A DNA stretch of 39,485 bases from Paludibacteraceae bacterium. GTDB lineage: Bacteria; Bacteroidota; Bacteroidia; Bacteroidales; Paludibacteraceae. Position numbers and translations under genes: made by a program. Positions 3,344-33,451 of this stretch are shown here, piece by piece. The stretch's first letter is position 1; every line of letters starts with the position of its first letter. The DNA lies in assembly GCA_017447875.1 (NCBI GenBank), contig JAFSMP010000010.1, positions 1 to 39,485 of the forward strand, given 5' to 3'. The notes beneath the pieces are model-generated. The model saw only the letters and a program-made list of their open reading frames with translations, searched no databases and was not told the DNA's origin.

Positions 3344-3371
3344 CCCCTAACCGCTAACCGCTCACCGTTAA
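3344..3371. repeat. Heptamer array, CCGCTAA family (4 units)
   Basis: The units read cccctaa, ccgctaa, ccgctca, ccgttaa on the plus strand. The array lies inside the methyltransferase gene, where it encodes the RINGERLAVRGER segment. The same (G/C)TAACC unit recurs at 30630, 31557 and 32657. Confidence 0.75.
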
Positions 3372-3550
3372 TTCGCCATACGCGTCCGGGGAAATCCGCT
3401 ACCAACTCTTCCGAACAATATAAATGCGTATTGACGTCCAATTTGTGAAGACCGAAACGCTCTGCTACCAACTTATACGCACCTGCTTTTAATATCGCCG
3501 CATTCGGCTCATATAGGAAAAGCATGTGCTTTTCCTGACCGTCCTTCGGA

Positions 3551-3606
3551 CTGTTAGACCGCTCCGCTGTAAGACCGTTACACTGTAGGACCGCTTCGCT
3601 GTTAGA
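3551..3606. repeat. 16-bp tandem repeat, CTGTWAGACCG family (3.5 units)
   Basis: Three units of 16 bp start at 3551, 3567 and 3583, and a half unit at 3599. Each begins CTGT(T/A)(A/G)GACCG. The array lies in the coding region of the methyltransferase. Its 11-bp core CTGTAAGACCG also occurs, inverted relative to the coding strand, inside mtaB near 34341. Confidence 0.75.
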
Positions 3607-3971
3607 TTCCTCCTCGCGAGTGAAGGTGAAAGCTTGGTCCTTTTTATCAAGGTCGATAGCGGTAATTTGCCCCGTACCTCCACTTAGCAGCAACAGTTCT
3701 TTGACTTCATTCTTGATGGCGACCACATAAATGTCCCATGTGACTGAAGACAAGGCATTGACTGCTTGCGTCAAGTCCAGCATGGGAGAGAGTTTAATCA
3801 GTATCCGTTTTCCGTGACCCAAAAGAGTAGGCAACAACTCTACCACATTGGGTGTGCAATCTTCGAGACGAAAGACCTTGCCTCCATGACTATCTCGCCT
3901 TGCTGGATCGAGGAAAATTAAATCGTACTGCCCTGCTGAGGCTAAGAACTCTTCGGCTGTAGAGTTATTAA

Positions 3972-3985
3972 TTTTGAATTTTGAA
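3972..3985. repeat. Heptamer duplication TTTTGAA x2 causing a frameshift
   Basis: Two exact, adjacent copies (3972-3978 and 3979-3985) read TTCAAAA on the coding strand. Deleting one restores the methyltransferase reading frame. The unit is the same as the GAAAATT array at 16916-16943 on the other strand. Confidence 0.85.
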
Positions 3986-4341
3986 TTGGAAGTTATGCTC
4001 CGCTATGCGACATAATTCCGCGTTCTGCTCTACATAATCTATCGAAGAAAAAGAATCGCTCAGAAAGTAGGTGTCTACTCCATACCCACCTGTGAGGTCA
4101 ACCATCTTTTCTCCGCTCACAAGGCTTGCTTTGAAGCGTGCAGCCAATTCCGACGAGCATTGCTCACAACTGAGGCGAATGGGATACCACCAATCCTCTA
4201 TTGCGGCAAAGGAGGGCAACTTATCCGCTGTCCGTTCACGACCTTCGACTTGCTGGAGAAACCACCGCCATTCGTCGTCCGTCAAGTGCTTGTATTTATT
4301 TCGCTGGAGCGCTAAGTCAAGGCTATTTACCATTTTTTCAT

Positions 4342-5442
4342 TTACCATTTGGTCATTTGACTCAATTTTGCTCCGTGGTAATAAAATGAAAGAATTTCTT
4401 CGTATGGATGTCCTTCCGACGCCATGACGGCTGCACCGATCTGGCAAAGCCCTGCGCCATGACCCCAGCCGTGGCCGGAGAGGGTAAAAGTTTGGCGCTC
4501 CGCGCTTGTTTGAAGGTTTGAAGGTTTGATAGTTGTTTTTTTTACTTCAAACCATGAACTATAAAGACAACTCTTGCTGAGCCAAAGACGAATCTTTAAT
4601 TCTTTGCCGATGATCTCTGTGTGCTTGGTTCCCACGATCTTGAGACTATCGATTCGTCCTGATGCACCGCGATGCAGAGGAATAAGGTCGATAATTTCAC
4701 CAAAATCTATTCCTGATTTAGTGCGTACTATCTCGCTGAGTTCTTCGGCGGTGTAGGTCACCTTCCAATCCCGGAAGTCTTTGGTCTCCTGATCGTAGTC
4801 GTTAAGAATAGAAGTGAGACGTGAGACCGCTTTGCTGTGAGAAGTGAGATCGCAATAATCGCACTTTACCGACTGAATATAGGGCACGTCGATATCTTCC
4901 CAGCAGGTGCGCCAGATCTCGGTGCGTCCGCCGCAACACTTGTAGTACCGGCAGTCACATATTTCTATTTTCTCATTTTCACATTTCCCTATTTTCTCAT
5001 TTATGAGAACTTGGCCTGCGGTTGCACGGACGGCTTCTACTGCCCGTTCATTCATTCTGCGCAGGCCCTCATACCGCTGACAGTGGTCATCGGCACAGAC
5101 ATCATACCCCTCATGGTTGGGTTTTTGCATCGCACGAATGGCCCAACTGCGACTAATCACCGCGTGTGCCTTCAGCAGTTCCATCGGGCTGTTGGCGTTC
5201 ATCTCAGACGAGATGACCGAACAGAGATAATCTTCGAGATCAATCGTGTTGATGGCGGTTTGCGTACCATCCGCATTGTCACGAATCTCGAGAGAACCGG
5301 CGAACTCTTGGTCTTCATGGCGATCCCAGTGAAAACCAATACCTATCCGCACGTTCTTTAGCACGAACGTGTTCTCCTTCTGTTCAAACTCGATATGAGG
5401 CGCAGTAAGAATACCTACTTTAATCTGGCGAGTAACTCCCAT
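4342..5442 (-). CDS. SpoIID/LytB domain protein
   Basis: The 366-residue protein has the SpoIID/LytB core: [18 protein letters not shown] followed by [13 protein letters not shown], and near the C-terminus the motif [20 protein letters not shown]. SpoIID is a peptidoglycan lytic transglycosylase in sporulating Firmicutes, and LytB is an amidase enhancer. In Bacteroidales the role is unproven, but acting on cell-wall glycan is a fair inference. I see no signal peptide at the annotated start, which is odd for a wall enzyme. The central part contains Cys pairs ([16 protein letters not shown]) and two repeat-derived stretches (4508-4531 and 4965-5002). The start ATG lies 28 bp inside the upstream glycosyltransferase gene, and the stop overlaps the methyltransferase start. 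Confidence 0.87.
4508..4531. repeat. 8-bp tandem array GTTTGAAG (3 units)
   Basis: The units gtttgaag, gtttgaag, gtttgata lie inside the SpoIID gene, just before its conserved C-terminal motif. They encode the low-complexity [11 protein letters not shown] segment. The total of 24 bp keeps the reading frame. The GTTTGA core is shared with the 10-bp array at 5961. Confidence 0.7.
4965..5002. repeat. 14-bp direct repeat, CTATTTTCTCATTT
   Basis: Two exact copies (4965-4978 and 4989-5002) start 24 bp apart, so the frame is kept. They lie in the SpoIID gene and encode the doubled motif ENEKIE / NEKIGK. The spacing and composition resemble the other short arrays here. Confidence 0.7.
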
Positions 5443-6743
5443 GTACGCAGACGATCTTTGTACCAGTTATTGCGGTTCATGGCGACGATGTCGCAGTTGG
5501 CGTCGGAGTTATCTTCCCATCGTCGGCAGTTATACACCACGTCGTAGATGCGTCCGATCGGGTAGTCCCGACTAATCCGCAAACCAACCGCATAGTCCTC
5601 ACCGTACTTCGTCGTCGGGTAGTTGATCGTGCGCAGCAGCGGCACATAGAACCCACGCGGAGCACCGAGTCCGTTGATTCGGAGCGCATTGTTACGCCCG
5701 TTATCGTCCGTCCACTCTCTATGATCGATCACACCAGGAGGAAGAATCTCACCCGACATATTGGTCAACTGATACGTGCCGATCACCATGCCGTAGTTAC
5801 CGCTCTCAAACGCATCAATGAATTTTTGCACAGTCGTCTCGTCAAAGTAGGTATCGTCGCTGTCCAACTGAATCGCGTATTTACCGCAACGCGGATCATG
5901 AATCGCCACATTCCAGTTACCACCTATCGCGTGCCAGGTGGGGTCTTGCGCAATATAAACGAGGTTTGATGTTGTTTGATGTTGTTTGAGGTCGTTTGAT
6001 ATGGTTTGAATGATTTCCGCTGTGCCGTCCGTCGAGTTGTCATCTACGACGATGACATTGAACGAGTAGGGTGCTCTTACTTTCTGGTTCAGCGCACTAT
6101 GTACCGCGTCCGCGATCGTCCGTGCACGGTTCTTACAAGGAATAATCACGCTCGCTGTCACCGGATAGTCCTCTGCTTGCGGCAACTCCTTATATTCACC
6201 CGGCTTCAGGTATGCACCCATTCGCTTCAAGTGCGCCGTGACGCATTGTTCCATCTCGATCTGTACCTGCCGATTTCGCGGATCGACATAGTCGAACAGT
6301 TTCTCACCGGACTTGCGGGTATCCGTCTCTACCTCATAGTACAAATATTCCGGAATATGCTCTAATTTCTCTGCCCGCAGACGAAGATCATACAATCCTG
6401 CAAACTCGTACTCCGTGTCCATCTGAGCAACTATCGCTTTTAATTTTTCCGTGTCCCAAAGCATCACTGCTCCGAAGTCAAAATCATCCCGCAATGCACC
6501 TATCTGATAGTCGATCACCGGCGCTTGCGTAACGGTGTCGCCTATCTTGGCAAAATGGTCCGCATACACCATCGTGGCACCGGACATCTCCAGCACTTGA
6601 ATCATTCGTTCTTGTCCCAGATACACCCATTTGATCTCGGGTTTGAGACAGATCATCGTGTATTTCTCTTCACTCTTTGCTGCGATCTCTTTAATCGCCT
6701 TCGTGCCGCACACGCGACCCGGTAAATAAAATGTGGATATCAT
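5415..6743 (-). CDS. Family 2 glycosyltransferase with an extra N-terminal domain
   Basis: The 442-residue protein has a GT2 (GT-A fold) domain from about residue 195: [13 protein letters not shown] (199-210), [10 protein letters not shown] (232-241) and the metal-binding QLDSDDTY (292-299), followed by [11 protein letters not shown] and [11 protein letters not shown]. Residues 1-190 form a separate region with no motif I recognise. There are no membrane segments. The sugar donor and acceptor cannot be read from the sequence. It overlaps the BadF kinase gene by 4 bp (ATGA) and the SpoIID gene by 28 bp, so the three are translationally linked. This suggests a shared role in cell-wall sugar metabolism. 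A 10-bp repeat array encodes the [14 protein letters not shown] loop (about 247-260). Confidence 0.87.
5961..6010. repeat. 10-bp tandem array, N3GTTTGANN type (5 units)
   Basis: Five consecutive decamers: gaggtttgat, gttgtttgat, gttgtttgag, gtcgtttgat, atggtttgaa. They lie inside the glycosyltransferase gene between the [10 protein letters not shown] motif and the acceptor region. The TTTGA core is at a constant position in each unit. Confidence 0.8.
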
Positions 6744-7603
6744 TCTGTTGTCGGAATTATTGCATCTTTATGGTATTCTTTGAGGCCCTCGATAGGATCT
6801 TTTAAGATGGTGCCCATCGGAACTCCTTCGGCCTTCATGGCTTCTTCGAGGATGGGTTTGTAGTAGTAAGCAATAGAGCCTACGAAACCGATCGGCGCGG
6901 TGGCTTTGTACTGCACCAAGTTTCTCCGCACGAACTGCACGAAATGGTCATACACGAGGGCATGGATCCGCGGGTCGTCCATATGGTCCGCGCAGAAAAG
7001 GGACAGACGTGCCAGGAATCGGTTCGGGAAGGGTTGCCGGTACACTTTCTCGATGATATCTGCCATCGAGGTCTCTTGCTCGCGGAAGAACGTCTCTTTC
7101 AGATCATCGCCCAACTGATTCTTAAGCAGGTCGCCTACGAGTCGTTTACCGAGCACCGCGGCCGAACCCTCATCGCCTAAGATGTAACCCAACGACGGTA
7201 CACACCAATCGATCGCTTCTCCGTTATAGAAACAACTGCCGGAACCCGTGCCTAAGATACAAGCCACACCTGCGTTATGCCCCAGCAAACCCCTTGCGGC
7301 TCCTAACATATCGCTCTCTACACTCACCTCGGCTTTCTTAAACACCCCTTCCAGTGCCTTTTTAACATACCCTTTCTTCTCCGGTGTACAGCCCGCACCA
7401 TAGAAGAAGACATGCGTCAGCGTGCCTGCCCAAAGGAGCGGAGCGATCTGCGGCAAGAGTTGGTTACAGATGCTGTTCCGCATCGCGTCTGAAGTCTGAA
7501 AAAGCGGGTTGATCCCATCGGTGAAGACATCCGAACACTGACCGCTCGCGGTCACTAAACACCAATGCACTTTCGTGCTTCCACTGTCGGCGATTAATAC
7601 CAT
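6740..7603 (-). CDS. BadF/BadG/BcrA ATPase family sugar kinase (N-acetylglucosamine kinase-like)
   Basis: The 287-residue protein has the ASKHA fold: phosphate-1 motif [10 protein letters not shown] (5-14), phosphate-2 motif ILGTGSGS (about 116-123) and the GDEGSA segment. In this family this pattern marks N-acetylglucosamine-type kinases, which phosphorylate amino sugars with ATP. It is the first gene of the leftward operon, with its own promoter at 7643-7674, and overlaps the glycosyltransferase start by 4 bp. Together with SpoIID and the glycosyltransferase it hints at reuse or turnover of cell-wall amino sugars. The substrate is inferred from the family. Confidence 0.87.
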
Positions 7604-7610
7604 AATGACA

Positions 7611-7638
7611 AATCAAAAATTAAAAATTACGAATTATG
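7611..7638. repeat. Heptamer array AATTAAA type (4 units) in a 5' leader
   Basis: The units aatcaaa, aattaaa, aattacg, aattatg lie between the promoter and start codon of the BadF kinase gene, so they are in its untranslated leader. Confidence 0.65.
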
Positions 7639-7642
7639 GGTG

Positions 7643-7674
7643 CAAAGGTACAAAAAAATAAGCAAATAAACAAA
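7643..7674 (-). promoter_or_regulatory. Promoter of the badF-GT-spoIID-methyltransferase operon
   Basis: Read on the minus strand: TTTG (7674-7671), 20 bp, TACCTTTG (7650-7643). The kinase start codon is 40 bp downstream. Confidence 0.8.
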
Positions 7675-7690
7675 ATAATCCGCTAAAAAA

Positions 7691-7722
7691 TTTGCATATA
7701 TGCAATTTTTGTAGTAATTTTG
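7691..7722 (+). promoter_or_regulatory. Promoter of the DUF4874/DUF4832 gene
   Basis: TTTG (7691-7694), 20 bp, TAATTTTG (7715-7722). The -33 box begins a perfect palindrome, TTGCATATATGCAA (7692-7705). Confidence 0.8.
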
Positions 7723-7741
7723 CACGCAAAATGGTTTTGAG

Positions 7742-11079: not shown

Positions 11080-11614
11080 TGCCGTAGATGCAGTTGGCGC
11101 ACCAGATCGTGTACTGCGTCACCATGAACCAATCACCAGCACGAATCCATAAGATCACACTTAAGATATCCACGGCGAGCCAGATGAACCAGTGCTCGCG
11201 ATACACGAGAATCATCAGTACCTGCGCCACAAGTGCAGGTACTGTCGTGAAGGCATCTAAATACGGCTGGGTATCATCGGTGTATGCAGCGAGTCCCCAT
11301 CCGACGAGCCATGAACCGAGTAGAGTCGTAACGATGATCAGCGCTATCACGGAAGGCTGCAAGCTGCGCGTCTCTACTTTCCACTTTCCACTTTCCACTT
11401 TCAACCGTTTACGCCATGCGTAAACTCCGTACACCATCGTGCCGAAATAATAGGCATTGATGGCTATCTCGCCGTAGAAACGCTGGGTGTAGCAGAGCCA
11501 AGTGTAGGTCAACACCTGCGCAAAACCGAAGGCGAAAGTGAGGATATTGCGTCGCGAAGCCAGCACGACGGAGCAGATCCCCAGACAGCAACTAATCAGC
11601 GATAACGCACTCAT
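11057..11614 (-). CDS. pnuC: PnuC-type nicotinamide riboside/mononucleotide transporter
   Basis: The 185-residue membrane protein has about seven hydrophobic segments and the family motifs LTFAFGFAQVLTYTWLCY, FYGEIAINAYYF and the C-terminal ILWIRAGDWFMVTQYTIW. PnuC proteins let NAD precursors (nicotinamide riboside) cross the inner membrane, trapped by later phosphorylation. No kinase or other NAD gene is adjacent. A heptamer array inserts the charged stretch KRLKVESGKWKVETRS into a loop after the YGVYAWRKR segment, probably cytoplasmic. Its start overlaps the DUF4837 stop by 4 bp, so it is downstream in the same unit. Confidence 0.88.
   Translation of the reverse strand: MSALSLISCCLGICSVVLASRRNILTFAFGFAQVLTYTWLCYTQRFYGEIAINAYYFGTMVYGVYAWRKRLKVESGKWKVETRSLQPSVIALIIVTTLLGSWLVGWGLAAYTDDTQPYLDAFTTVPALVAQVLMILVYREHWFIWLAVDILSVILWIRAGDWFMVTQYTIWCANCIYGIISWRKP
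11374..11401. repeat. Heptamer array CCACTTT (4 units) inside pnuC
   Basis: The units ctacttt, ccacttt, ccacttt, ccacttt read GAAAGTG-type on the coding strand, like the array after rpmF at 16803. They lie in the loop-coding part of pnuC. Confidence 0.8.
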
Positions 11615-16077: not shown

Positions 16078-16097
16078 TAATTTTTTTGCGAAAATCC

Positions 16098-16128
16098 TTG
16101 CATATATCAAAAAAAAGCAGTACCTTTG
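16098..16128 (+). promoter_or_regulatory. Promoter of the DUF177-rpmF run
   Basis: TTG (16098-16100), 20 bp, TACCTTTG (16121-16128). The spacer reads CATATATC then AAAAAAAAGCAG, almost identical to the murF-alr promoter. Confidence 0.85.
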
Positions 16129-16145
16129 CACCCGATTTTGCGTCT

Positions 16146-16586
16146 ATGAGCGAGCAGAACCACTATATCATCGACTTGAGGCGTTTGCCGATAGGCACGC
16201 ATGAGTTTGATATTCAGTTAGATGACGCGTTCTTCGAGGGCTTGGAGAAGTCCGAGATACTGCGCGGAAGGATAGGTTGCAAAGCGACGCTAAATCTCCG
16301 GGAGGAGGACTATCAGCTCACTATTGCGGTTCATGGAACTGTATTTGTTGTGTGCGATAGATGCCTCGATCCCATGCCCCTTGAAATAGAAGCTAATGAT
16401 GAATTGATGAATGATGAGCCGAAGGCTCCTAATGATGAAATCGATTTATCCTGGCTCGCCTATGAAATAGTAAGTATCAATATTCCGATCGTTCACTGTC
16501 ACCAAGCGGGTGAGTGCAACAAGCAGATGGAACTTCTCCTCCATGATCACCTATGTGACGAACCGGAACCCGAAGATAAAGTTTAA
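16146..16586 (+). CDS. DUF177 (YceD) family protein
   Basis: The 146-residue protein starts at ATG 16146, 17 bp after the promoter; an upstream in-frame start at 16086 lies before it. The family signature is CDRCLDPMPLEIEAN in the middle and CHQAGECN near the end, giving paired cysteines. DUF177 genes almost always sit directly upstream of rpmF, as here. YceD is linked to 23S rRNA and ribosome large-subunit formation in other bacteria. A short acidic repeat (NDELMNDEPKAPNDEID) lies in the second half. A heptamer array spans the stop codon. Confidence 0.88.
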   Translation: MSEQNHYIIDLRRLPIGTHEFDIQLDDAFFEGLEKSEILRGRIGCKATLNLREEDYQLTIAVHGTVFVVCDRCLDPMPLEIEANDELMNDEPKAPNDEIDLSWLAYEIVSINIPIVHCHQAGECNKQMELLLHDHLCDEPEPEDKV

Positions 16587-16608
16587 AGTAGAAAGTTTAA
16601 AGTTTAAA
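16581..16608. repeat. Heptamer array GTTTAAA (4 units) across a stop codon
   Basis: The units gtttaaa, gtagaaa, gtttaaa, gtttaaa begin within the last codons of the DUF177 gene and fill most of the gap to rpmF. Confidence 0.8.
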
Positions 16609-16621
16609 GAAGTAAAATATT

Positions 16622-16804: not shown

Positions 16805-16837
16805 GAAAGGTGAATGGTGAAAAGTGAAAGGTGAAAG
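16803..16837. repeat. Heptamer array GTGAAAG (5 units) after rpmF
   Basis: The units gagaaag, gtgaatg, gtgaaaa, gtgaaag, gtgaaag start at the rpmF stop codon. The nearby CTTTTCACC (16857-16865) could pair with the third and fourth units. Confidence 0.82.
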
Positions 16838-16901
16838 GTGTTTATACTCCTTTTGCCTTTTCACCTTATATTTAATTAACGCGCGTACGTGAGTACGTAT
16901 G

Positions 16902-16943
16902 TGACTCGGGAGAGTCAAAATTGAAAATTGAAAATTGAAATTT
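16902..16943. repeat. Small hairpin and heptamer array GAAAATT (4 units) abutting a start codon
   Basis: TGACTC/GAGTCA (16902-16907, 16912-16917) forms a 6-bp stem with loop GGGA and no T run. The heptamers caaaatt, gaaaatt, gaaaatt, gaaattt (16916-16943) then run straight into the ATG at 16944. The unit matches the one that breaks the methyltransferase gene. Confidence 0.82.
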
Positions 16944-17933
16944 ATGTTTGGTAACAATTCCAACAATGAAGGAGAACGCAGACCCCGTCCGCGTTTCCAC
17001 AGAGAAAGTGAGCCGGTATCGGCTCGTCCCAGATTCCGTCGCGAGGACGGAGAGAGTAGACCTAGACCGTATGGAGATCGTCCGTTCAATGGTGAGCGTT
17101 CGTTCAATGGAGAGCGTCCGAATCGTCCTAACCGTCCGTTTGGTGGTAAACCCAAACGTAACAACAATCTCTATTCGCCCCACAAACAGCAGGTGTATAA
17201 AGAGCAACACGAGGACCCGACGAAACCAGTTCGTCTGAATAAGTTCCTCGCGAACGCCGGTATCTGTTCCCGTCGTGAGGCAGATGATTTTATCCAGGCA
17301 GGAGTGATTACCGTCAATGGGGTAACCGTCGATAACTTAGGCGTTAAAGTGCTGCCGACAGATGACATCCGTTTTCATGACCAGCCCGTTCGTCGGGAGC
17401 GTAAGGTGTATATCCTGCTCAACAAGCCCAAGAACACCGTTACCACTACCGATGACCCGCAAGAGCGTCACACGGTGATCGATATCGTGCGTAATGCTTG
17501 TCCGGAGCGTATCTATCCGGTAGGTCGTCTGGACCGTAATACGACCGGTGTGCTGCTGCTCACCAATGACGGTGACCTGGCAGCCAAACTGACCCATCCG
17601 AAATTCCACAAGAAGAAGATCTATGCCGTAACGCTTGATAAGGAGTTGGAGGAGATTGATGAAGCCGTACTGCGTAACGGTGTCATCCTGGATGACGAGC
17701 GTATTGTACCCGATGCTTTGGAGTTCCCGAAAGCGGACCGCAAACATATCGGTCTTGAGATTCATTCCGGTCAAAATCGCGTCGTACGTCGTATGTTCGA
17801 GAAAGTGGGCTATAAGGTAGTGAACCTCGACCGCGTGTCTTTTGCAGGCTTGACCAAGAAGAATGTAGGCCGCGGCAAATGGCGTTTCCTTACGCCTAAA
17901 GAGGTGGCATTTCTTCAGATGGGACAGTTCTGA
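16944..17933 (+). CDS. RluB/RsuA-type pseudouridine synthase with a basic N-terminal tail
   Basis: The 329-residue protein starts at ATG 16944, right after a heptamer array. Residues 1-90 form a disordered tail rich in Arg, Pro, Asn and Gly (RPRPRF, RPFNGERSFNGERPNRPN). An S4 RNA-binding domain follows (about 95-155; VRLNKFLANAGICSRREADD). The catalytic domain has ILLNKPKNTVTT and GRLDRNTTGVLLLTNDGDL, where the Asp of RLD is the nucleophile. Enzymes of this group convert specific uridines in 23S or 16S rRNA to pseudouridine. The Arg-rich tail is common in Bacteroidota homologues. Confidence 0.9.
   Translation: MFGNNSNNEGERRPRPRFHRESEPVSARPRFRREDGESRPRPYGDRPFNGERSFNGERPNRPNRPFGGKPKRNNNLYSPHKQQVYKEQHEDPTKPVRLNKFLANAGICSRREADDFIQAGVITVNGVTVDNLGVKVLPTDDIRFHDQPVRRERKVYILLNKPKNTVTTTDDPQERHTVIDIVRNACPERIYPVGRLDRNTTGVLLLTNDGDLAAKLTHPKFHKKKIYAVTLDKELEEIDEAVLRNGVILDDERIVPDALEFPKADRKHIGLEIHSGQNRVVRRMFEKVGYKVVNLDRVSFAGLTKKNVGRGKWRFLTPKEVAFLQMGQF
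17079..17114. repeat. 18-bp tandem repeat in the Arg-rich tail
   Basis: Two 18-bp units (17079-17096, 17097-17114), identical at 16 positions, encode the doubled FNGERS/P motif. The period is a multiple of three, as expected for a protein-level repeat. Confidence 0.7.
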
Positions 17934-17952
17934 AAACGGAAAACGGAAAAGT
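17932..17952. repeat. Heptamer array GAAAACG (3 units) bridging two genes
   Basis: The units gaaaacg, gaaaacg, gaaaagt begin inside the stop codon of the pseudouridine synthase gene and run into the GTG start of the MMPL gene. The gap is made almost wholly of the array. Confidence 0.82.
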
Positions 17953-24055: not shown

Positions 24056-24967
24056 ATGAAACACGCACGTGAGATAAAAGTAGGAGTATTGGCAGCTGTA
24101 TGTCTGTTCTTGCTCATTTTCGGATTTAACTTCCTCAAGGGTGTTAATATCTTCTCGCCAACCAACAGTTATCATGCTGTCTATGCCCACTTGCATGGAC
24201 TCGAAGAACAAGCAGCCGTCTATATCCGTGGACATAAGGTGGGGCAGGTTGATGCCATCCGGTATGACTTCAAGCAAGATAGCGCTTTCACCGTCGATAT
24301 ATCCATCTTCAAGGATATCGTTCTGCCGCAAGGCACGGTGCTCGCCCTCATCTCCGACGGACTCTTGGGTGGTATGGCGCTCGAACTGCAGTTCCCCGAC
24401 CAATCACCCATCTCTAATAACCAATTACCCATAGAGAGAGGCACCTTCCTCACTACCACCTATGTACCCGGACTCGTGGAGAGCGTACAAACGAATGTGC
24501 TGGCGCATATCGATCAAGCCCTGTTGGATGTTGATGCACTGGTTGCGGAACTCAAGACCCAGGTAGAAGGCGAGCATCTGAAAAACACCCTCGAGAACGT
24601 AGACCGTATCTCCTCTGACCTCACCGGTGTCTCTGCAGATCTCAAGCAACTGATGAAGACACAAGTACCGTCCATCGTGCATAATGCCGATACTGCAGTG
24701 GCTAACTTCAATATAATTGTGGCGGATCTCAAGGAAGCGAACCTCAAACAAACCTTCGCACGGGTCGATACAGCCGTTGGTGGATTAAACAATATCATCA
24801 CGGACGTACGGGATGAGAAAGGTACATTGGGACAGTTGATATACAATAAATCCCTCTACAACCATATCGATGCGACCGTCATCTCCGCCGACTCTCTGCT
24901 CACCGATCTGAAGGCTCACCCCAAACGGTACGTACAATTCTCTTTGTTTGGTAAAAAAGATAAATAA
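24056..24967 (+). CDS. MlaD family (MCE domain) lipid-transport protein
   Basis: The 303-residue protein has one N-terminal membrane helix (about 10-28), then an MCE domain (about 36-115; VYIRGHKVGQVDAIRY, LISDGLLGGMALEL). The long C-terminal part (about 150-300) is helical and likely coiled coil, ending VQFSLFGKKDK. MCE proteins form rings that shuttle phospholipids between the membranes. It lies 5 bp after the amidase gene, and a strong terminator follows. The matching MlaE/MlaF genes are not here. A heptamer-derived loop (DQSPISNNQLPIERG) sits at the edge of the MCE domain. Confidence 0.9.
   Translation: MKHAREIKVGVLAAVCLFLLIFGFNFLKGVNIFSPTNSYHAVYAHLHGLEEQAAVYIRGHKVGQVDAIRYDFKQDSAFTVDISIFKDIVLPQGTVLALISDGLLGGMALELQFPDQSPISNNQLPIERGTFLTTTYVPGLVESVQTNVLAHIDQALLDVDALVAELKTQVEGEHLKNTLENVDRISSDLTGVSADLKQLMKTQVPSIVHNADTAVANFNIIVADLKEANLKQTFARVDTAVGGLNNIITDVRDEKGTLGQLIYNKSLYNHIDATVISADSLLTDLKAHPKRYVQFSLFGKKDK
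24400..24434. repeat. Degenerate heptamer array CCAATYA/CCCATNN (5 units) in mlaD-like gene
   Basis: The units ccaatca, cccatct, ctaataa, ccaatta, cccatag have an overall 21-bp period (3 x 7), which keeps the reading frame. Confidence 0.55.
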
Positions 24968-25273: not shown

Positions 25274-25293
25274 CACTCGTTTTCGACTAAACG

Positions 25294-25321
25294 GAAAACA
25301 GAAAATTGAGAACTGAAAACT
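25294..25321. repeat. Heptamer array GAAAANN (4 units) before the dnaA start
   Basis: The units gaaaaca, gaaaatt, gagaact, gaaaact end 5 bp before the dnaA ATG, in the leader where ribosomes load. Confidence 0.72.
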
Positions 25322-25326
25322 AAAAA

Positions 25327-26694
25327 ATGACAACATCACTAACACAACAATGGGCACAGTGTCAGACCATCTTGGCTGATAACTTGACGGCAAGTGCATA
25401 CCAGACATGGTTTGCGCCCATCGTACCCTTGCAGTATGCAGAGGGCGTGTTAGTGCTGCAAGTCAAATCGCAGTTCGTGGCGGAGTATATCGAAGAGAAC
25501 TATATTCCTCTTCTATCGAGCGCGATCATACGCGTATTTGGCGCGGGTACGCGTCTCGAGTACCGCATACTCATCGACTCCACTTCCGATACCGGAACCC
25601 GTATTCCCTCCAACGGAGCACCTGCGAAGAGTCAATGGGTGATGCCGGTTGAGCGGTCTAACAATGATGACCTGCCACAACTCAATGAGTTATATACCTT
25701 CGATTCATTTATTGCCGGAGAACCTAATAAACTGGCTCGTACTGCCGGTATGGCAATTGCCAAACAACCCGGATACACGGCCTTCAACCCTCTGTTCATC
25801 TATGGTGGTAGCGGAGTAGGGAAGACCCACCTCGCTTGTGCGATCGGACATCAGGTGCAGGCGTTGCACCCGCAGGCACGCGTGTTATACGTGAGTGCGA
25901 ATACCTTTAAATTACAGTTCCAGGACGCACGCAAAGAGAACCGCATTCCGGATTTCCTCAATTTCTATCAGTCGGTGGATGTACTCATCCTCGATGATAT
26001 ACAGTATTTCGCAGGACTCAAAGGTACGCAGGACACTTTCTTCCATATCTTCAATTACCTCCAGCAGAGTCGCAAACAGTTGATCCTCACCTGCGATCGG
26101 CCGCCTGTGGAACTCAAGGATATCGAAGAACGACTGCTCACTCGTTTCAAATGGGGTTTGGCAGCGGAGATAGCACGACCGGACTATACCTTGCGCAAGA
26201 GTATCCTCTTGTCTAAGATGCACAGGGATGGTATCACCCTCTCAGATGAGATCGTGGAGTTCATCGCTACCAACGTACGGGACTCCGTACGCGACCTCGA
26301 AGGTATCTTGGCATCCCTTTTGGCGCACTCTACCTTGACGGACAAAGAGATCGACCTGCCTTTGGCAGAACAGGTGGTGAGCCATATCGTGGCGTTGCAA
26401 CCTCAGACGACAACCGTGCAGGATGTCATCTCCGCCGTCGCGCAACATTTCAATATCCCGGAGAAAGCAATCATGGCGCAAAACCGCTCCAAAGAGATCA
26501 CGCAGGCGCGTCACGTAGCGGCATACCTGAGCAAACAACTCACCGACAGTTCCCTTAACGAGATCGGTTTCCGTATGGGTAAACGAACCCATGCTACCAT
26601 CTTGCACTCGATCACTTACATTCGTGAGGCCATAGAGTTCGATCCTGTATTACGCCAGCATATAGCGCAACTGCAATCGGCTTTGCAGCACTAA
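25327..26694 (+). CDS. dnaA: Chromosomal replication initiator DnaA
   Basis: The 455-residue protein has the N-terminal interaction domain (about 1-80; WFAPIVPLQY), a variable linker, the AAA+ domain with Walker A GGSGVGKTH (160-168) and Walker B VLILDDIQYF, and domain IV. The latter carries the signature SKEITQARHVAAYLSKQL and GKRTHATILHSI, which reads DnaA boxes. It opens the origin and loads the helicase. It has its own promoter and starts a run with the AddAB-like genes. The next gene starts 11 bp after its stop. Confidence 0.97.
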   Translation: MTTSLTQQWAQCQTILADNLTASAYQTWFAPIVPLQYAEGVLVLQVKSQFVAEYIEENYIPLLSSAIIRVFGAGTRLEYRILIDSTSDTGTRIPSNGAPAKSQWVMPVERSNNDDLPQLNELYTFDSFIAGEPNKLARTAGMAIAKQPGYTAFNPLFIYGGSGVGKTHLACAIGHQVQALHPQARVLYVSANTFKLQFQDARKENRIPDFLNFYQSVDVLILDDIQYFAGLKGTQDTFFHIFNYLQQSRKQLILTCDRPPVELKDIEERLLTRFKWGLAAEIARPDYTLRKSILLSKMHRDGITLSDEIVEFIATNVRDSVRDLEGILASLLAHSTLTDKEIDLPLAEQVVSHIVALQPQTTTVQDVISAVAQHFNIPEKAIMAQNRSKEITQARHVAAYLSKQLTDSSLNEIGFRMGKRTHATILHSITYIREAIEFDPVLRQHIAQLQSALQH

Positions 26695-26705
26695 CCGATA
26701 CACCC

Positions 26706-29700: not shown

Positions 29701-29753
29701 TCTGGTTCGCACAAAAGAATAAGTTAGTAGAAATATCAAATATTAAATCTTAA
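26706..29753 (+). CDS. UvrD/RecB-like helicase-nuclease (AddA-type)
   Basis: The 1015-residue protein starts at a GTG. It is a superfamily 1A helicase: Walker A RASAGTGKTYTL (about 12-23), motif Ia AVTFTNKATAEM, Walker B HVLMDEFQDTSRLQW, motif III VGDIKQSIYRWRNGD, motif V ILTVHASKGLQAQTLF and motif VI YVALTRAEDNLF. The C-terminal end has a RecB-type nuclease (AIYIDHRELRPDRVM, then AIVLDYKFG and QVSEYMEAL). With the next gene it forms the AddAB-like pair that processes double-strand breaks for recombination. A large opposite-strand ORF inside it is a shadow. Its last codons are made by a heptamer array. Confidence 0.92.
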   Translation: MIDIRHPLNVCRASAGTGKTYTLAAYYVGLLLSGEDYRSILAVTFTNKATAEMSERIIGYLYGISQGQERAFLLRARDFMIRHQDATDEQLAQRAGECFQAMLMDFDNVHICTIDSFLQSLLTGLAGVLRMSTGLTTELDIDHVIRQAVDQLLTTHLSEADRAILEDYMLLKLDEQSHWDVRQSLCAMAKELYNESVQMLDADGRILFDAASIARRRETLEQRWLSDPDLAALKALLARCNPESYNRYTTTAYERLKQSVADPSTLNAKDRFRGVSDKSCNAKEMAQATELAARVARTYNTIQLTLRFSRDMELMASLRDLIQTNLAEANCALLAQTASTLTQALHDGDADFILEKAGIRYRHVLMDEFQDTSRLQWTVINRLLQDLLAGEGHTLLIVGDIKQSIYRWRNGDWSIMASLGADEAHYSESINSAFPNLVRNYRSSEQVVNFNLSLFDHIIASYPYETEKELIASIYGEGFTPETLTTFYQADKKPGGYVRFRAIPKATKEDLALDMFDAIEDLLAKGVQPSDMMILVREKKEAALICDLHATIDYPYLSQTNLVSADSFLLEASEAVRTIIAGLKVLVHDDPVAAQYILMVTEQANSITRLKQAVSGKTPLYEAVCEVMKILICDENGQYAGTETAYINSLLDRTRAYVSAYGSHMSDFLIYWEDTLHAKPIPAAATDAIRILTVHASKGLQAQTLFVPFCTWTKEASRHPEKIWCEVAPTLEAGNDYVPVQDGNEMAESDYQTEYEAEHLNMRIDNLNMLYVALTRAEDNLFISTTYPVTSKGVMGTCNHVGRYIMDFLGVDEYEVGEPVIKGVKELKNEGEKETAELWANDSQVRFVQSQEGALYTDLGNEAYRRVARMDFGNLCHEIFAHLRKADELDQVLHTFLSSGEIASEEQFQEIRALISSAWEGSDEMRDWFTAPWQLKLEQAIYIDHRELRPDRVMINPVTNEAIVLDYKFGHWEDKYKVQVSEYMEALRRMGYSPVRGYLWFAQKNKLVEISNIKS

Positions 29754-29765
29754 ATTTTAAATTTG
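29731..29765. repeat. Heptamer array AAATNTN (5 units) joining the AddA- and AddB-like genes
   Basis: The units aaatatc, aaatatt, aaatctt, aaatttt, aaatttg run through the stop codon of the first gene (29751-29753) and supply the TTG start of the second (29763). Confidence 0.8.
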
Positions 29766-32555
29766 CAATCATTTTTACGTCATACCGCCGAGTCCATCTT
29801 GGAATCCCTGGATTGGAAACAGTTGAGTCGCACGACCCTCGTGCTTCCCTCCCATCGTGCGGGTTTGGTACTCAAAGAGGAGTTACTGCGCTTGCAGCAG
29901 GAGCATCATGCGCAAGCCGTATGGGCTCCCTCTGTGCAGACACTCACCCAACTGCAAGATGCCCTCAGCCCCCTCTATACGGAAGACGAACTGTTCACCA
30001 TCATCCGGCTCTATAAAATTTATCAGAATAATCCGATTAATCAGATTAATCCGAATAATTTGATGCCATTGGATCTATTCCTCGGTTGGGGTCGTCAGAT
30101 GCTAGCCGACTTCACGAACATAGATGCTTCTATGCCGGCATCCGAAGTACCGAACTTCTTTGCCAACACCATCGCTGCCCATGAACTAAGCGAATGGCAT
30201 CTCGATCCCGAAACTGAAGACCGCCTAAGACGATTAATAAGTCCAACGTCCAATATCCAATATCCAATATCCAATGACTCTGTCAAGAGTCAATACGAGA
30301 TCCTTTGGCGCCAGCTCTACGACTTCTACCAAGCCCTGCGCTCGGAGATGGACGCGGAGCAGAAAGGCTATGCCGGCATGCGGCAGCGGGCGGTTATCGA
30401 GCATTGGGAAGATGAGTCCATCCAATCCCAGATTGCAGGTCGAACGTATATCTTCGTCGGCTTTAACTACCTGCTCCCCGTAGAACGGGAACTCATGGAG
30501 CATTTGCGTGATGCCGGTCAGGCGCAGTTCTACTGGGACTACGTGCCGGAATTTACCACCAACACGAAGGCTTTCTCCTTCGCCCAACAGAATCATACCC
30601 TCTTGGGTGGCACGAACATCCAACCACCCGTAACCGGTAACACGTCACCCGTAACCCTTATTCAATGCAGTTCCCGCGAGGCGCAGGCGCAGTACGTGCA
30701 CCGCTGGTTGCAATCGAACTACACGGCTAAGGGACAGAAAGTGGGTGTCGTCATCTGCGACGAGACGATTTTGGAACCCGTCATATACACCTTACCTGCT
30801 ATCACCTTACCCGGTGAGGAAGCACCGACACCGATTAATATCACCAAAGGTTTTCCGCTCCGTAACACCGCTGTCTATGCGAATGTCCTCTCATGGCTCG
30901 CAGACTCCGCACTTGGTAAAGCGGATGACCTCGTCGCACCCGAAATTATCGACCGACTCATCGAGTCAGTCCTTTCCAAAAACTCAGAATCCTCAGATTC
31001 TTCCGAGTACTCCGATTCTTCTGAGTCTCTCTCTTGGAAAGAGCTCCTCATCCTCGAGTCCGAGTACCAGGTGCGCAAGCTCGCTAACCAACTGCGTCAG
31101 ATCATGACGGAAGGAATCGGTGTACCCTTCACGCTGAGGCTGCTGCGTCTGCTCTTCCGCCGTATGATGGAAGCCGTCACTATGCCTTTCCATGGTGAAC
31201 CCGTCACCGACGTGCAGGTCATGGGTGTTCTGGAGACCCGTCTGCTGGATTTTGACCGACTCTTGCTGCTCAATGTCGAAGAAGGGGTGTTACCGCAACA
31301 TCAGAACGACAGTTCCTTCATCCCTTATTACCTGCGTAAAGCTTACCATATGCAGACCCCGGACGAACGGGCAACGGTCTATGCGTACAACTTCTTCCGG
31401 CTTATCCACCGCACCCACCAAGCGACGATCCTCTATGCGGATGCCGGCACCTCCGACAGCGCTAAAGGTATGTCCCGCTTCGTGATGCAGATGCTTTATT
31501 CCCCTGCCTTCGACATCACTCGTTCGACCTTGCAGGAACCGAGCACTCTGTCCCCCGTAACCCGTACCCCGTACCCCGTAACCCTTACCGCGTCGCTTTT
31601 GTCAACCTTGACCAAGGACGACCACGGCATCCTGCGCAAAGCGGACGGACATCGTTTCCGCCTCTCGCCCAGTGCCCTCAATACCTTTATTGGGTGTCCC
31701 CGCAGTTTCTATCTGCAATATATCCTGGGCTTGCAACCTCAGGAACCCGAAGAGGTCATCTTCGAGGCGGCTACTATGGGCTCCTTTGTCCACCATGCGA
31801 TGGAGTTTATCTACCGCACCTACCTGCATTGCGATAATACGCATCCCGTGCGTATCACGCCCGAAGCTATCGATGCGATTCTGACTGACGATACCAAACT
31901 GCAAACCGCCCTTATGGCAGCCTATGAAGGCACTCCTTACTTTCCCGAAAACCATACAGGCGAAAACGTGATTATCAAAGGTTACATCCGTAATATCTTA
32001 GAGCGTGACCGCGAAGATGCCAAAGTCGGTCTGCAGATGCTGCTGCTCGAGCAAGACCGCTCTTTCCCTGTCGTGCTCGATGGGATAGGGGAGATACTCA
32101 CCGGTGGAATTATCGACAGACTCGATATCTACGGTCCCGAAGGACATAAACACCTACGGGTGGTCGATTATAAGTCCGGTTCCTACTCCGATACCACCCA
32201 TCTCAAGCGTATGTCGGCTAACTGGGATGAACTCATGGAGAGTGAAGAAAAAGGATACGTGCGGCAGACACTCATCTATAGTCATGCGGTGCAACAACAC
32301 GGAACGCAAGGTCTTCCCATCGAACCTCATCTCTATTTCTGCCGACGCAAACTGACCGATATCGTCACCACCATTGACGTCCAGAACGAGACCGTGCATG
32401 ACTATGCCGCGATCCGCCAACCCTTCTACGATGCCTTGTGTGCCAAGATGGCGCAGGTGCTCACTACCACTGATTTCCCGCAATGCGACGAAGACAAGTG
32501 TCCGTCTTTCTGTCCTTTCTTCGACCTCTGCGGACGTAAAAAAGCAGACTACTGA
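29763..32555 (+). CDS. PD-(D/E)XK nuclease family protein (AddB-type)
   Basis: The 930-residue protein begins at a TTG created by the upstream array. An inactive helicase-like region fills the first two thirds (TTLVLPSHRAGLVLKEEL, VVICDETILEPVIYTLP, LLLLNVEEGVLPQ). The C-terminal nuclease domain has the hallmark GGIIDRLDIYG and RVVDYKSGSY. Cys in FIGCPRSFYLQY and three in CDEDKCPSFCPFFDLCGR suggest the AddB-type iron-sulfur cluster. It partners the AddA-like helicase. Five short-repeat arrays lie inside this gene, all in linker-like stretches (QNNPINQINPNN, SPTSNIQYPISND, PPVTGNTSPVT, NSESSDSSEYSDSSES, SPVTRTPYPVT). No other gene in the window has as many. Confidence 0.88.
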   Translation: MQSFLRHTAESILESLDWKQLSRTTLVLPSHRAGLVLKEELLRLQQEHHAQAVWAPSVQTLTQLQDALSPLYTEDELFTIIRLYKIYQNNPINQINPNNLMPLDLFLGWGRQMLADFTNIDASMPASEVPNFFANTIAAHELSEWHLDPETEDRLRRLISPTSNIQYPISNDSVKSQYEILWRQLYDFYQALRSEMDAEQKGYAGMRQRAVIEHWEDESIQSQIAGRTYIFVGFNYLLPVERELMEHLRDAGQAQFYWDYVPEFTTNTKAFSFAQQNHTLLGGTNIQPPVTGNTSPVTLIQCSSREAQAQYVHRWLQSNYTAKGQKVGVVICDETILEPVIYTLPAITLPGEEAPTPINITKGFPLRNTAVYANVLSWLADSALGKADDLVAPEIIDRLIESVLSKNSESSDSSEYSDSSESLSWKELLILESEYQVRKLANQLRQIMTEGIGVPFTLRLLRLLFRRMMEAVTMPFHGEPVTDVQVMGVLETRLLDFDRLLLLNVEEGVLPQHQNDSSFIPYYLRKAYHMQTPDERATVYAYNFFRLIHRTHQATILYADAGTSDSAKGMSRFVMQMLYSPAFDITRSTLQEPSTLSPVTRTPYPVTLTASLLSTLTKDDHGILRKADGHRFRLSPSALNTFIGCPRSFYLQYILGLQPQEPEEVIFEAATMGSFVHHAMEFIYRTYLHCDNTHPVRITPEAIDAILTDDTKLQTALMAAYEGTPYFPENHTGENVIIKGYIRNILERDREDAKVGLQMLLLEQDRSFPVVLDGIGEILTGGIIDRLDIYGPEGHKHLRVVDYKSGSYSDTTHLKRMSANWDELMESEEKGYVRQTLIYSHAVQQHGTQGLPIEPHLYFCRRKLTDIVTTIDVQNETVHDYAAIRQPFYDALCAKMAQVLTTTDFPQCDEDKCPSFCPFFDLCGRKKADY
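30024..30059. repeat. 9-bp tandem array CMGAWTAAT (4 units)
   Basis: The units cagaataat, ccgattaat, cagattaat, ccgaataat encode QNN PIN QIN PNN in the AddB-like gene. Confidence 0.8.
30243..30277. repeat. Heptamer array CCAATAT (5 units)
   Basis: The units ccaacgt, ccaatat, ccaatat, ccaatat, ccaatga; three are exact. They encode PTSNIQYPISND in the AddB-like gene. Three units (21 bp) equal seven codons, so triple expansions are frame-neutral. Confidence 0.85.
30630..30657. repeat. Heptamer array GTAACCS (4 units)
   Basis: The units gtaaccg, gtaacac, gtcaccc, gtaaccc encode PVTGNTSPVT in the AddB-like gene. Confidence 0.75.
30982..31026. repeat. 9-bp tandem array in a shifted reading frame (5 units)
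   Basis: The units actcagaat, cctcagatt, cttccgagt, actccgatt, cttctgagt match the MMPL and amidase arrays, but are read one base out of register, giving a Ser/Asp/Glu linker instead of Thr/Pro. Confidence 0.78.
31557..31584. repeat. Heptamer array GTACCCC/GTAACCC (4 units)
   Basis: The units gtaaccc, gtacccc, gtacccc, gtaaccc encode PVTRTPYPVT in the AddB-like gene, 900 bp after a closely related array. Confidence 0.8.
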
Positions 32556-32557
32556 CT

Positions 32558-33451
32558 ATGATACAATATTACAACGTTGCCAACCATCTGTTTGCCATTG
32601 AAGCATCAGAATCGCAGATCGCGCAGTTAACTAACTACGCGCCCTTCCTCTCTCCCGTAACCGGTAACCCCTCACCTTTATTCACCATCCGTGTGAACGA
32701 TGGTGAAGCTCCTTCTTTAGAGGATTGGTCCCACGTCTATACCGACACCTCCGACGACGACATGCCGCGTATCGAGATGTACCGTAAGGACGGTGCTTGG
32801 CTCTTCCGGGTCTCGATGTCCCGCGAAGGAGAGATAGTAAGTGTGATGGAGTGTACGTCCGATTGGAGCGAGGTGAATCTGTATATGTGCACCGACTGCA
32901 CACGCTTTGCGATCGACAATGCCGCGATGCTAGTCTATGCCTTTGCAACGGCAGACAAGAAGACCCTGCTCTTCCATTCGTCCGTCACTGTGCTTTATAA
33001 CTACGCCTATATGTTCCTCGGACATTCCGGCACCGGTAAGAGCACCCATTCACGGCAATGGAAAGCCGCCTTCCCTGATGCCGAACTGATCAATGATGAT
33101 AACCCTGCGGTGCGTATTGAGAATGGGGTGGTGCAGGTCTATGGTACGCCCTGGAGCGGCAAGACACCCTGTTACAAGAACACCTCTGCACCCGTTGCTG
33201 CACTCGTGCAACTGGCGCAGGCACCGCAGAACGAGATACATCGCTTGCGCATGACGCAAGCCTATCCCTATATTCTGGCATCCGTCAGCGGACTCAAAGT
33301 ATTACCGGAAATGATGGACCGACTTTATGAGTCCATCGCCGAACTGTTGGAACTGACTCCTGTCTATAAATTAGAATGTCTGCCTAATCCTGAGGCGGCA
33401 CAGTTATGCGCTCAAACGTGTTCACCTTCGTCCGATCATACGGACAACTGA
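32558..33451 (+). CDS. HprK-like P-loop kinase family protein
   Basis: The 297-residue protein has a beta-rich N-terminal half (about 1-140) and a C-terminal P-loop domain with Walker A LGHSGTGKSTHSRQW (about 153-167), followed by INDDNPAV and VYGTPWSGK. This pattern matches HPr kinase/PEP-carboxykinase-like proteins. In Bacteroidota these are often of unknown role, and some lie near peptide-modification genes. No HPr or peptide precursor gene is visible here. It starts 2 bp after the AddB-like gene, so it is probably co-transcribed. Its last 68 bp overlap mtaB on the other strand; the end (CAQTCSPSSDHTDN) is not conserved-looking. Function unknown. Confidence 0.78.
   Translation: MIQYYNVANHLFAIEASESQIAQLTNYAPFLSPVTGNPSPLFTIRVNDGEAPSLEDWSHVYTDTSDDDMPRIEMYRKDGAWLFRVSMSREGEIVSVMECTSDWSEVNLYMCTDCTRFAIDNAAMLVYAFATADKKTLLFHSSVTVLYNYAYMFLGHSGTGKSTHSRQWKAAFPDAELINDDNPAVRIENGVVQVYGTPWSGKTPCYKNTSAPVAALVQLAQAPQNEIHRLRMTQAYPYILASVSGLKVLPEMMDRLYESIAELLELTPVYKLECLPNPEAAQLCAQTCSPSSDHTDN
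32657..32670. repeat. Heptamer pair GTAACCS
   Basis: The units gtaaccg and gtaaccc encode the SPVTGNPSP stretch of the HprK-like protein, the same unit as in the neighbouring AddB-like gene. Confidence 0.6.

What the first reader, a model, noticed from the sequence alone, without database searches (positions are those of the whole stretch)
3344..32670. Dispersed heptanucleotide tandem arrays across the chromosomal part
At least 15 arrays with a 7-bp unit are visible (3344, 3972, 7611, 11374, 16581, 16803, 16916, 17932, 24400, 25294, 29731, 30243, 30630, 31557, 32657). They fill short gaps between genes, abut or create start and stop codons, and sit in linker segments of proteins. Units fall into families (GAAANNN, AAATNTN, CCAATAT, STAACCS), and neighbouring arrays share a family. 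I saw none in the integrated element at 34745-39485. Heptameric short repeats are known in cyanobacteria (STRR elements), but I know of no described equivalent in Bacteroidales. A 7-bp period, rather than 3 or 6, inside coding DNA argues for a DNA-level process such as polymerase slippage or templated addition.
Basis: partly seen in the sequence, partly recalled or inferred. Interest (0 to 1): 0.78.

Follow-up and report, generated by a model that had tools for sequence, protein, structure and literature searches.

The report
Dispersed seven-base repeats filling protein linkers
In a group of rumen bacteria, short runs of a repeated seven-letter DNA word are scattered between genes and inside the loose linkers of proteins, and different lineages favour different words, which suggests that some DNA-level process keeps writing and swapping them.

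Summary
In detail: the window has 8 exact period-7 runs (shuffle mean 0.10) and 13 of the 15 listed arrays are found independently. In 36 related Paludibacteraceae loci there are 97 exact period-7 runs in 643 kb, against 4 of period 6 and 10 of period 8. In 20 other Bacteroidales families there are 5 in 360 kb.

New here: arrays lie in gene gaps and in unconserved linkers, and one linker is reused by many species with different units. Between species about 91-95% identical, 14 of 36 array sites are unchanged, 21 are replaced or absent on one side, and 1 is a plain multiple-of-7 indel. In coding DNA, length differences are multiples of 3 at 24 of 24 differing sites. Unit families are lineage-specific: (AANGGCG)x3 has 49 and 92 matches in two sister genomes and 0-2 in 14 others, although the single heptamer is about equally common in the four genomes checked.

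This works like cyanobacterial or Xanthomonas heptamer repeats, not like hypermutable microsatellites. Best explanation: rare DNA-level events write heptamer patches, probably with existing arrays as donors, and selection on frame and stops filters them. The machinery is unidentified.

The parts
3337..3371 (.). Imperfect heptamer array, unit CCGCTAA (STAACCS family), inside the open reading frame 3184-3846(-) of a PG_1098-like gene
   Evidence: TRF 5.0 copies, 78% matches; 22 of 28 lag-7 matches; ORF and Pfam hits
3970..3987 (.). Heptamer array AATTTTG, 2.6 exact copies, at the place where the two halves of the PG_1098-like gene lie in different frames
7610..7629 (.). Heptamer array AAATTAA in the gap between the genes at 6740-7603(-) and 7742-9262(+)
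11376..11402 (.). Exact heptamer array ACTTTCC, 3.9 copies, inside pnuC (11057-11614, minus); encodes LKVESGKWKVE
16395..16417 (.).
   Evidence: 11% indels; 10 of 16 lag-7 matches
16577..16609 (.). Heptamer array TAAAGTT spanning the stop codon of the YceD-like ORF (16086-16586)
16805..16840 (.). Heptamer array GAAAGGT in the gap before the RluD-like gene
16917..16940 (.). Exact heptamer array AAAATTG, 3.4 copies, overlapping the start of ORF 16935-17933
17932..17950 (.). Exact heptamer array GAAAACG, 2.7 copies, in the short gap between the RluD-like and MMPL genes
24395..24432 (.). Weak, degenerate heptamer stretch inside the MlaD-like gene (18 of 31 lag-7 matches); below the TRF threshold
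25289..25334 (.). Degenerate array AAACTGA running over the dnaA start codon at 25327
29731..29762 (.). Heptamer array AAATATT spanning the addA stop and the gap to addB
30249..30275 (.). Exact array TCCAATA, 3.9 copies, in an addB linker; encodes SNIQYPISN; L005, L013 and L035 also have arrays at this site
30626..30657 (.). Array ACCCGTA in an addB linker; encodes PVTGNTSPVT; 8 species have arrays at this site
31554..31593 (.). Array CCCGTAA in an addB linker; encodes SPVTRTPYPVT; L005, L013 and L035 also have arrays at this site
32653..32676 (.). Weak array of the same ACCCGTA family in ORF 32558-33451; encodes SPVTGNPSP
   Evidence: 12 of 17 lag-7 matches; not reported by TRF

Best explanation
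These are short dispersed heptamer tandem arrays, like the STRR elements of cyanobacteria. They are written by rare DNA-level events that lay down or replace a patch of mostly about 18-37 bp in 7-nt register. They are kept where they do little harm, in gene gaps and disordered protein linkers. Shown: the period-7 excess, the sites, the frame and stop filtering, the whole-array replacements, the lineage-specific unit families and the fixed-plus-wobble unit positions. Inferred: the patch is copied during replication or repair, often from an existing array of the same genome (ectopic short-patch template use), so that common families become commoner; arrays then also grow by 7n block duplications. 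Selection afterwards removes frameshifts and in-frame stops.
For: Period-7 excess in window and clade. The size excess at lag 7 is flat from 18 to 37 bp, highest at 30-33 (72 seen, 0 in shuffles), and drops above 38, unlike lags 6, 8, 9 and 11, which are largest in their shortest occupied bin. Same linker, different unit in different species (AddA, AddB; MtaB). At 36 orthologous array sites 14 are unchanged and 1 is a plain multiple-of-7 indel; 9 carry clearly different unit families on the two sides. Coding length differences are multiples of 3 at 24 of 24 sites, non-coding 4 of 13. Whole-genome counts show lineage-specific families while single-unit seeds are similar in the four genomes checked. 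Unlinked arrays share units within a genome above label shuffles. Seven-fold block growth: lag-2 likeness of the AATNTCC wobble letter 54 of 87 against 33.6 expected, and clean +14 and +21 insertions.
Against: No donor-recipient pair was identified. The dispersed matches cover only the array and not its flanks, so copying from a particular donor is not shown. Ectopic copying alone does not say why the period is 7, nor why some unit positions never vary. 9 of 48 differing arrays do continue a local flank seed of 5 or more bases and in-place expansions exist, so part of the process is local slippage. The G289 stretches were picked because they held AANGGCG matches, which inflates; with G288 instead (first row) the same-unit excess is 1.42% against 0.93% (maximum of 300 shuffles 1.48%), although the within-one-mismatch excess still exceeds every shuffle. 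All genomes are assemblies from metagenomes or similar; no reads were seen.
Confidence: 0.45

Rival explanations
1. Purely local replication slippage. The polymerase slips back about 7 nt on sequence already at the site (the contact-length idea attributed to Mrazek 2007), arrays grow unit by unit, and selection for frame, stops and hydrophilic peptides creates the apparent families.
For: Heptamers are the commonest unit among 5-11 nt repeats in most genomes and a 7-nt polymerase contact was proposed (introduction of PMC4679880; passages of PMC4692102). Seeds of 5 or more bases in conserved flanks at 9 of 48 differing arrays, against 0.3% for swapped flanks. Clean +14 and +21 insertions. 14- and 21-bp periods are also in excess. 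Coding and non-coding families differ by stop content.
Against: Most differing arrays have no flank seed. The multiple-of-7 indel class has 1 of 36 sites. Single AANGGCG and AATNTCC are about equally common in the genomes with and without those arrays. The wobble letter of adjacent AANGGCG units is no more alike than drawn at random, 26 of 70 against 23.8. Short arrays do not outnumber 30-33 bp ones.
Confidence: 0.27
2. Functional arrays. Each family is a set of binding sites for a lineage-specific DNA- or RNA-binding protein, and selection spreads and keeps the sites.
For: Core-plus-wobble positions as in protein recognition: AANGGCG positions 1 and 4 never vary in 91 units while position 3 varies in 54. 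Lineage-specific vocabularies. The proposed role of TAACTGA repeats in Beggiatoaceae is regulatory (abstract passages of PMC4679880).
Against: 162 of 259 arrays lie in coding DNA, in linkers that differ between species. Several families coexist in one genome. Sites are lost or switched between close species. No protein was looked for or found.
Confidence: 0.12
3. A dedicated templated writer, such as a telomerase-like or diversity-generating reverse transcriptase with an RNA template, adds the heptamers.
For: Fixed and wobble template positions, independent wobble letters in adjacent units, family dispersal without matching seeds.
Against: The reverse transcriptase domain RVT_1 was found in only 3 of 15 genomes (G296, G297, G299) and not in G000, G288, G289, G292-G295 or G104. 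The assemblies are incomplete and one domain model was used, so other polymerases are not excluded. Many families per genome would need many templates.
Confidence: 0.05
4. Allelic exchange. Arrays differ between close species because recombination imports linkers from other lineages; the arrays themselves are old.
For: Sites are shared across the genus and families are shared between sister genomes.
Against: Flanks of many replaced arrays stay about as identical as the genome average, some within a few bases of the array. It moves the question of origin elsewhere.
Confidence: 0.08
5. Chance or assembly artefact.
For: All sequences are draft or metagenome assemblies; some contigs begin inside arrays.
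Against: Same imperfect arrays at the same place in independently assembled species; excess over shuffles; coding frame respected.
Confidence: 0.03

Closest known systems
STRR heptamer repeats of cyanobacteria (Calothrix, Nostoc)
   Same: Dispersed tandem arrays of 7-bp units with several families in one genome (three heptamer kinds reported for Calothrix PCC 7601, passage of PMC4692102). STRR details beyond that are recalled.
   Different: Different phylum and unit sequences. Here 162 of 259 arrays are in coding linkers and site-by-site family switching between close species is seen; I did not check whether STRRs do that.
(GGGANTN)n heptamers of Xanthomonas and GGGGA(C/T)T of Nostoc (PMC4692102, passages read)
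   Same: Heptamer with fixed and wobble positions; [quoted passage not shown] extensive length and sequence variation between closely related species at the same intergenic places.
   Different: G-rich single family with quadruplex potential and discussed as intergenic; here many families, not G4-like, often inside genes.
TAACTGA direct repeats of Beggiatoaceae, some Cyanobacteria and five Bacteroidetes (PMC4679880, introduction and passages read)
   Same: 7-bp tandem repeats, 2-6 copies per set in BOGUAY, sporadic distribution that includes Bacteroidetes.
   Different: One unit, mostly just upstream of start codons; related heptamers rarely or never repeated. Here a changing vocabulary and coding sites.
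Tandem repeats of Borg elements (PMC9879509; abstract, section 2.1.3 and first part of the Discussion read)
   Same: Fast-evolving repeats in gaps and in genes, encoding disordered protein segments; flanking partial repeats.
   Different: Borg units are essentially unique to each region, perfect, and divisible by three in genes. Here the period is fixed at 7, units are imperfect and shared across sites.
Hypermutable simple sequence repeats (contingency loci)
   Same: Tandem repeats that can sit in genes and at starts.
   Different: Copy-number steps are rare here and the hosts include housekeeping genes (addAB, mtaB, pnuC).
Rickettsia palindromic elements inside genes (recalled, not read)
   Same: Small dispersed DNA kept in frame in variable protein regions.
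   Different: Those are palindromic and not tandem.

Membership tests
Heptameric STRR-type dispersed repeats | 7-bp unit in short tandem arrays, in excess over other periods | tested here: met
Heptameric STRR-type dispersed repeats | Many unlinked copies of the same unit in one genome | tested here: met
   (counts are overlapping 21-base matches, not arrays)
Heptameric STRR-type dispersed repeats | Mainly intergenic location | tested here: not met
   97 of 259 arrays non-coding or at gene edges, an enrichment over 5-11% of the sequence, but 162 of 259 are coding
Heptameric STRR-type dispersed repeats | Shared ancestry with cyanobacterial STRRs | not tested
   No cyanobacterial genome was compared
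Hypermutable microsatellite / contingency locus | Frequent gain or loss of single repeat units | tested here: not met
   1 of 36 sites scored as a multiple-of-7 indel; species-level comparison, strains not available
Hypermutable microsatellite / contingency locus | Phase variation of surface genes | not testable with these tools
   No reads or expression data; one housekeeping-type gene is out of frame at an array
Diversity-generating retroelement or telomerase-like writer | Reverse transcriptase in the genome | tested here: not met
   RVT_1 in 3 of 15 genomes; absent from the window's assembly and from G288 and G289; assemblies incomplete
Borg-type tandem repeats | Unit unique to each region and length divisible by three in genes | tested here: not met
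   Period 7 in genes and shared units

The most novel reading that the evidence does not exclude
A trans-acting writing process holds a small lineage-specific vocabulary of heptamers, each with fixed and free positions, and overwrites about 30-bp patches of the chromosome with it. Protein linkers across the genome are thereby rewritten in the current dialect of the lineage, faster than point mutation changes their flanks.
Probability: 0.15. Interest if true: 0.9.

Novelty: new variant of a known kind. Interest (0 to 1): 0.6.

Why it matters
How dispersed heptamer repeats spread in bacterial genomes has been open since they were described in cyanobacteria (recalled; PMC4692102 says no detailed literature on heptameric repeats existed). 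This clade offers close species pairs in which sites are unchanged, switched or filled, which makes the mechanism testable. It also shows a source of new protein linker sequence: DNA with a period of 7, read in three frames, kept only if free of stops and in frame.

Tried and rejected
Strand bias: the G-rich strand of arrays agreed with the third-position GC skew in 86 of 119 cases (72%), but random 30-mers with a G-C imbalance did so in 3915 of 5901 (66%), so no replication-strand signal is claimed.

A single common motif for all arrays: weak; the families are better described one by one.

Local flank seeds as the sole origin: 9 of 48, so not general.

Reverse transcriptase.

Short-patch illegitimate recombination as a named mechanism: recalled only. 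One search found 4 papers holding the terms, and the one opened (PMC5312590) showed only reference-list passages, so it is not cited as evidence.

Rows dropped: pairs with poor collinearity were left out of the patch count (9 of 13 aligned pairs used), and three of those nine pairs share L008, so the patches are not independent. In one search the L010/L011 alignment was poor. 9 ragged arrays were dropped. One search kept 32 (AddA) and 34 (AddB) of 37 loci. In one search my linker pattern gave lag scores for only 7 of 28 MtaB linkers, none of them a heptamer array and one of them the window's own; the MtaB arrays cited come. One search used 145 of 162 coding arrays. One search dropped units with more than 3 mismatches, its AAAGTCG group overlaps the AANGGCG group, and one of its five families (AACCCGT) showed no position effect (p=0.16). 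One search had one mistyped array and was redone; its source list was cut off.

Full report
What was checked. The window is contig 26 of a 2.25 Mb draft genome (G000, 70 contigs, 77% complete). Its nearest named relatives are Paludibacteraceae and Bacteroidales metagenome genomes, several named for ruminant gut samples (family placed in Bacteroidales).

The excess is real. At 10 or more matched bases the window has 8 exact period-7 runs, against 0.10 on average and at most 1 in 30 dinucleotide shuffles; periods 2-6 have none. TRF finds 13 of the 15 listed arrays and one more; 24400 and 32657 are weak. In 36 related named loci (643 kb) period 7 has 97 runs, period 5 one, 6 four, 8 ten, 9 nineteen, 14 fifty-two and 21 sixty. 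Ten loci outside Bacteroidota have 1 in 179 kb. The rest of the window's genome sample has 15 in 256 kb. Twenty stretches from other Bacteroidales families have 5 in 360 kb, in 3 of 20 stretches. Twenty stretches from the same family have 17 in 335 kb, in 6 of 20, so the trait is patchy there (two of these stretches were wholly masked and one is from the same genus). One common unit, TTGAAAG x3, is in 11 of 80 other family genomes and 2 of 147 other phylum genomes. Density varies within the genus, from 3-5 arrays per 100 kb in G290 and G291 to 22-26 in G288, G289, G292 and G293.

Where arrays lie. With greedy ORF calls in ten genomes, 97 of 259 TRF arrays are non-coding or at gene edges, while non-coding DNA is 5-11% of the sequence; 162 are coding. 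Within coding arrays the tandem unit carries a stop in 42 of 162 on the sense strand and 68 of 162 on the antisense strand; non-coding arrays carry one in 62 of 97 and 57 of 97. In AddA (32 orthologs) and AddB (34) the array-encoded residues sit in unconserved columns: mean consensus fraction 0.28 and 0.32, against 0.71 and 0.72 elsewhere (residues are not independent). The peptides are richer in S, N, Q and K and poorer in hydrophobic residues than their host genes (145 arrays).

Sites are reused. One AddA linker has arrays in 9 species and one AddB linker in 8, including the window, with different units. The MtaB linker before SPIRE holds arrays of six different units in L005, L035, L022, L008, L014 and L020. 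The window's own MtaB linker has no heptamer array. Other fillers occur in the same linkers, such as a hairpin-like stretch in L011 and L012.

How arrays change. Over 164 kb of aligned sequence from three species pairs (G288/G289 94.7% identical, G290/G291 93.7%, G292/G293 90.6%) there are 36 array sites: 14 unchanged, 1 with a multiple-of-7 indel, 12 with arrays on both sides but different sequence, and 9 with an array on one side only by my threshold. On inspection 9 of the 12 are clearly different families, one is the same family with substitutions, and two are related units with a length change. Some flanks are less alike (0.69-0.82) and some 'other' sides still look weakly heptameric. Across nine pairs, 42 divergent patches were found; 18 hold period-7 sequence on one or both sides and 24 do not. 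39% of patch sequences pass the lag-7 score, against 1% of conserved controls. Deduplicated differing sites: in coding DNA 24 of 24 length differences are multiples of 3 (6 are zero), non-coding 4 of 13; 5 of 37 are non-zero multiples of 7. Clean insertions of 14 and 21 bases exist. Flank seeds of 5 or more bases: 9 of 48 arrays, against 0.3% with swapped flanks. So local expansion happens but does not explain most differing arrays.

Array size. Excess lag-7 segments (1,086 kb, controls shuffled in 60-base windows) number 57, 55, 47, 72, 38, 20, 5 and 5 in bins 18-21, 22-25, 26-29, 30-33, 34-37, 38-44, 45-60 and above 60, with controls at most 3. Lags 6, 8, 9 and 11 are largest in their shortest occupied bin.

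Lineage-specific families. Whole-genome matches in 16 genomes: (AANGGCG)x3 with one mismatch, 49 in G288, 92 in G289, 0-2 in each of 14 others. (AATNTCC)x3, 160 and 63, 0-16 in others. (AAGAGTC)x3 with three mismatches, 24, 19, 9 and 35 in G292, G293, G300 and G301, 28 in G104, 0-5 in others; its reversed control is itself rich in G295, G298 and G299 (46, 38, 29), which is another family and not a clean control. (ACCCGTA)x3, the window's AddB family, 37 in G000, 141 in G288, 51 in G296, 48 in G301, 34 in G289, 0-16 in others; its reversed control has 23 in G290. These are overlapping matches, not arrays. Single AANGGCG occurs 0.68, 0.84, 0.69 and 0.73 times per kb in the G288, G289, G293 and G000 stretches, and AATNTCC 0.50, 0.53, 0.63 and 0.53. 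So seed abundance does not explain the families. Same-unit pairs more than 5 kb apart within a genome: 3.4% against 1.2% after label shuffling in a ten-genome set (maximum of 300 shuffles 1.8%). With G000, G288 and G293 only it is 1.42% against 0.93% (maximum 1.48%), and within one mismatch 8.2% against 5.7% (maximum 7.2%). Between the sisters G288 and G289 no difference is seen.

Fixed and wobble positions. In 23 arrays (91 units) near AATGGCG in G288 and G289, mismatches per position are 0, 2, 54, 0, 6, 10, 19; in 15 arrays (56 units) near AATCTCC they are 0, 0, 1, 19, 2, 8, 1; the AACCCGT family shows no significant position effect (p=0.16). The wobble letter of neighbouring AANGGCG units is no more alike than chance (26 of 70 against 23.8, p=0.32). 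For AATNTCC in G288 next neighbours show a weak excess (58 of 132 against 50.8, p=0.09) and second neighbours a strong one (54 of 87 against 33.6), which points to 14-bp block duplication (45 listed places of a cut list). Part of the interruptions in AACCCGT arrays may reflect avoidance of in-frame TAA, read by eye.

A case in the window. The PG_1098-like gene on the minus strand is in two frames that meet at the AATTTTG array 3970-3987. Its relatives have matches in 34 of 41 genomes (window's own included), with open frames of 373-506 aa at the main hits against 272 here, and a variable linker at the same place. A true frameshift, a mixed population or an assembly error cannot be told apart.

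Mechanism. The data fit rare events that write a heptamer patch, keep or replace what was there, and are filtered by selection. Existing arrays are the most economical donors because families are lineage-specific without matching seeds, but no donor-recipient pair was shown. RVT_1 was found in 3 of 15 genomes and not in the window's assembly or in G288, G289, G292-G295. The choice of 7 agrees with the polymerase-contact idea reported from Mrazek 2007 (PMC4679880 introduction) and remains inference.

Known or new. Heptamer repeats are known in cyanobacteria, Xanthomonas and Beggiatoaceae, and Borg repeats show the protein-linker side. Full-text searches of an open-access library showed, in the listings I saw, no description of such arrays in Paludibacteraceae; subscription papers are mostly not in it. 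I call it a new variant of a known kind.

Noticed in passing
window 3184-4447 (minus strand): PG_1098-like gene in two frames that meet at the AATTTTG array 3970-3987; relatives mostly have one open frame there.
   Followed up: partly
L011 17624-17758, L012 8556-8690 (MtaB linker); L179 (PG_1098-like linker): The same kind of linker is filled in some species by a hairpin-like GC-rich stretch (CCCCCTAAAGGGGG type) instead of heptamers.
   Followed up: no
window 3551-3606 and 34218-34394; L013 7960-8118: A different repeat word (CTGTAAGACCGC type, 16-bp period at 3551) fills linkers in this species and in L013.
   Followed up: no
L035 13286-13313 and upstream: A palindromic stretch (AATCTGATTAATCAGATT) sits directly beside a new heptamer array.
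   Followed up: no
L036, G002/L036 alignment patch at column 15340: About 117-bp in-frame-length expansion of a CTACGGAAC-type repeat (period near 9) absent from its sister L002.
   Followed up: no
L083 1-27; G104:C15:3-23; G104:C17:4-31; G289:C29:6-33: Several contigs begin within or a few bases from a heptamer array, so arrays may break short-read assemblies and be undercounted.
   Followed up: no
window 36031-39282: 1083-aa protein with CHC2 zinc finger, DNAG_N and Toprim domains (primase-like) in the putative integrated element.
   Followed up: no
G296:C18:31850-32446, G297:C30:9729-10331, G299:C1:122485-123039: Reverse transcriptase domains in three of 15 genomes tested.
   Followed up: no
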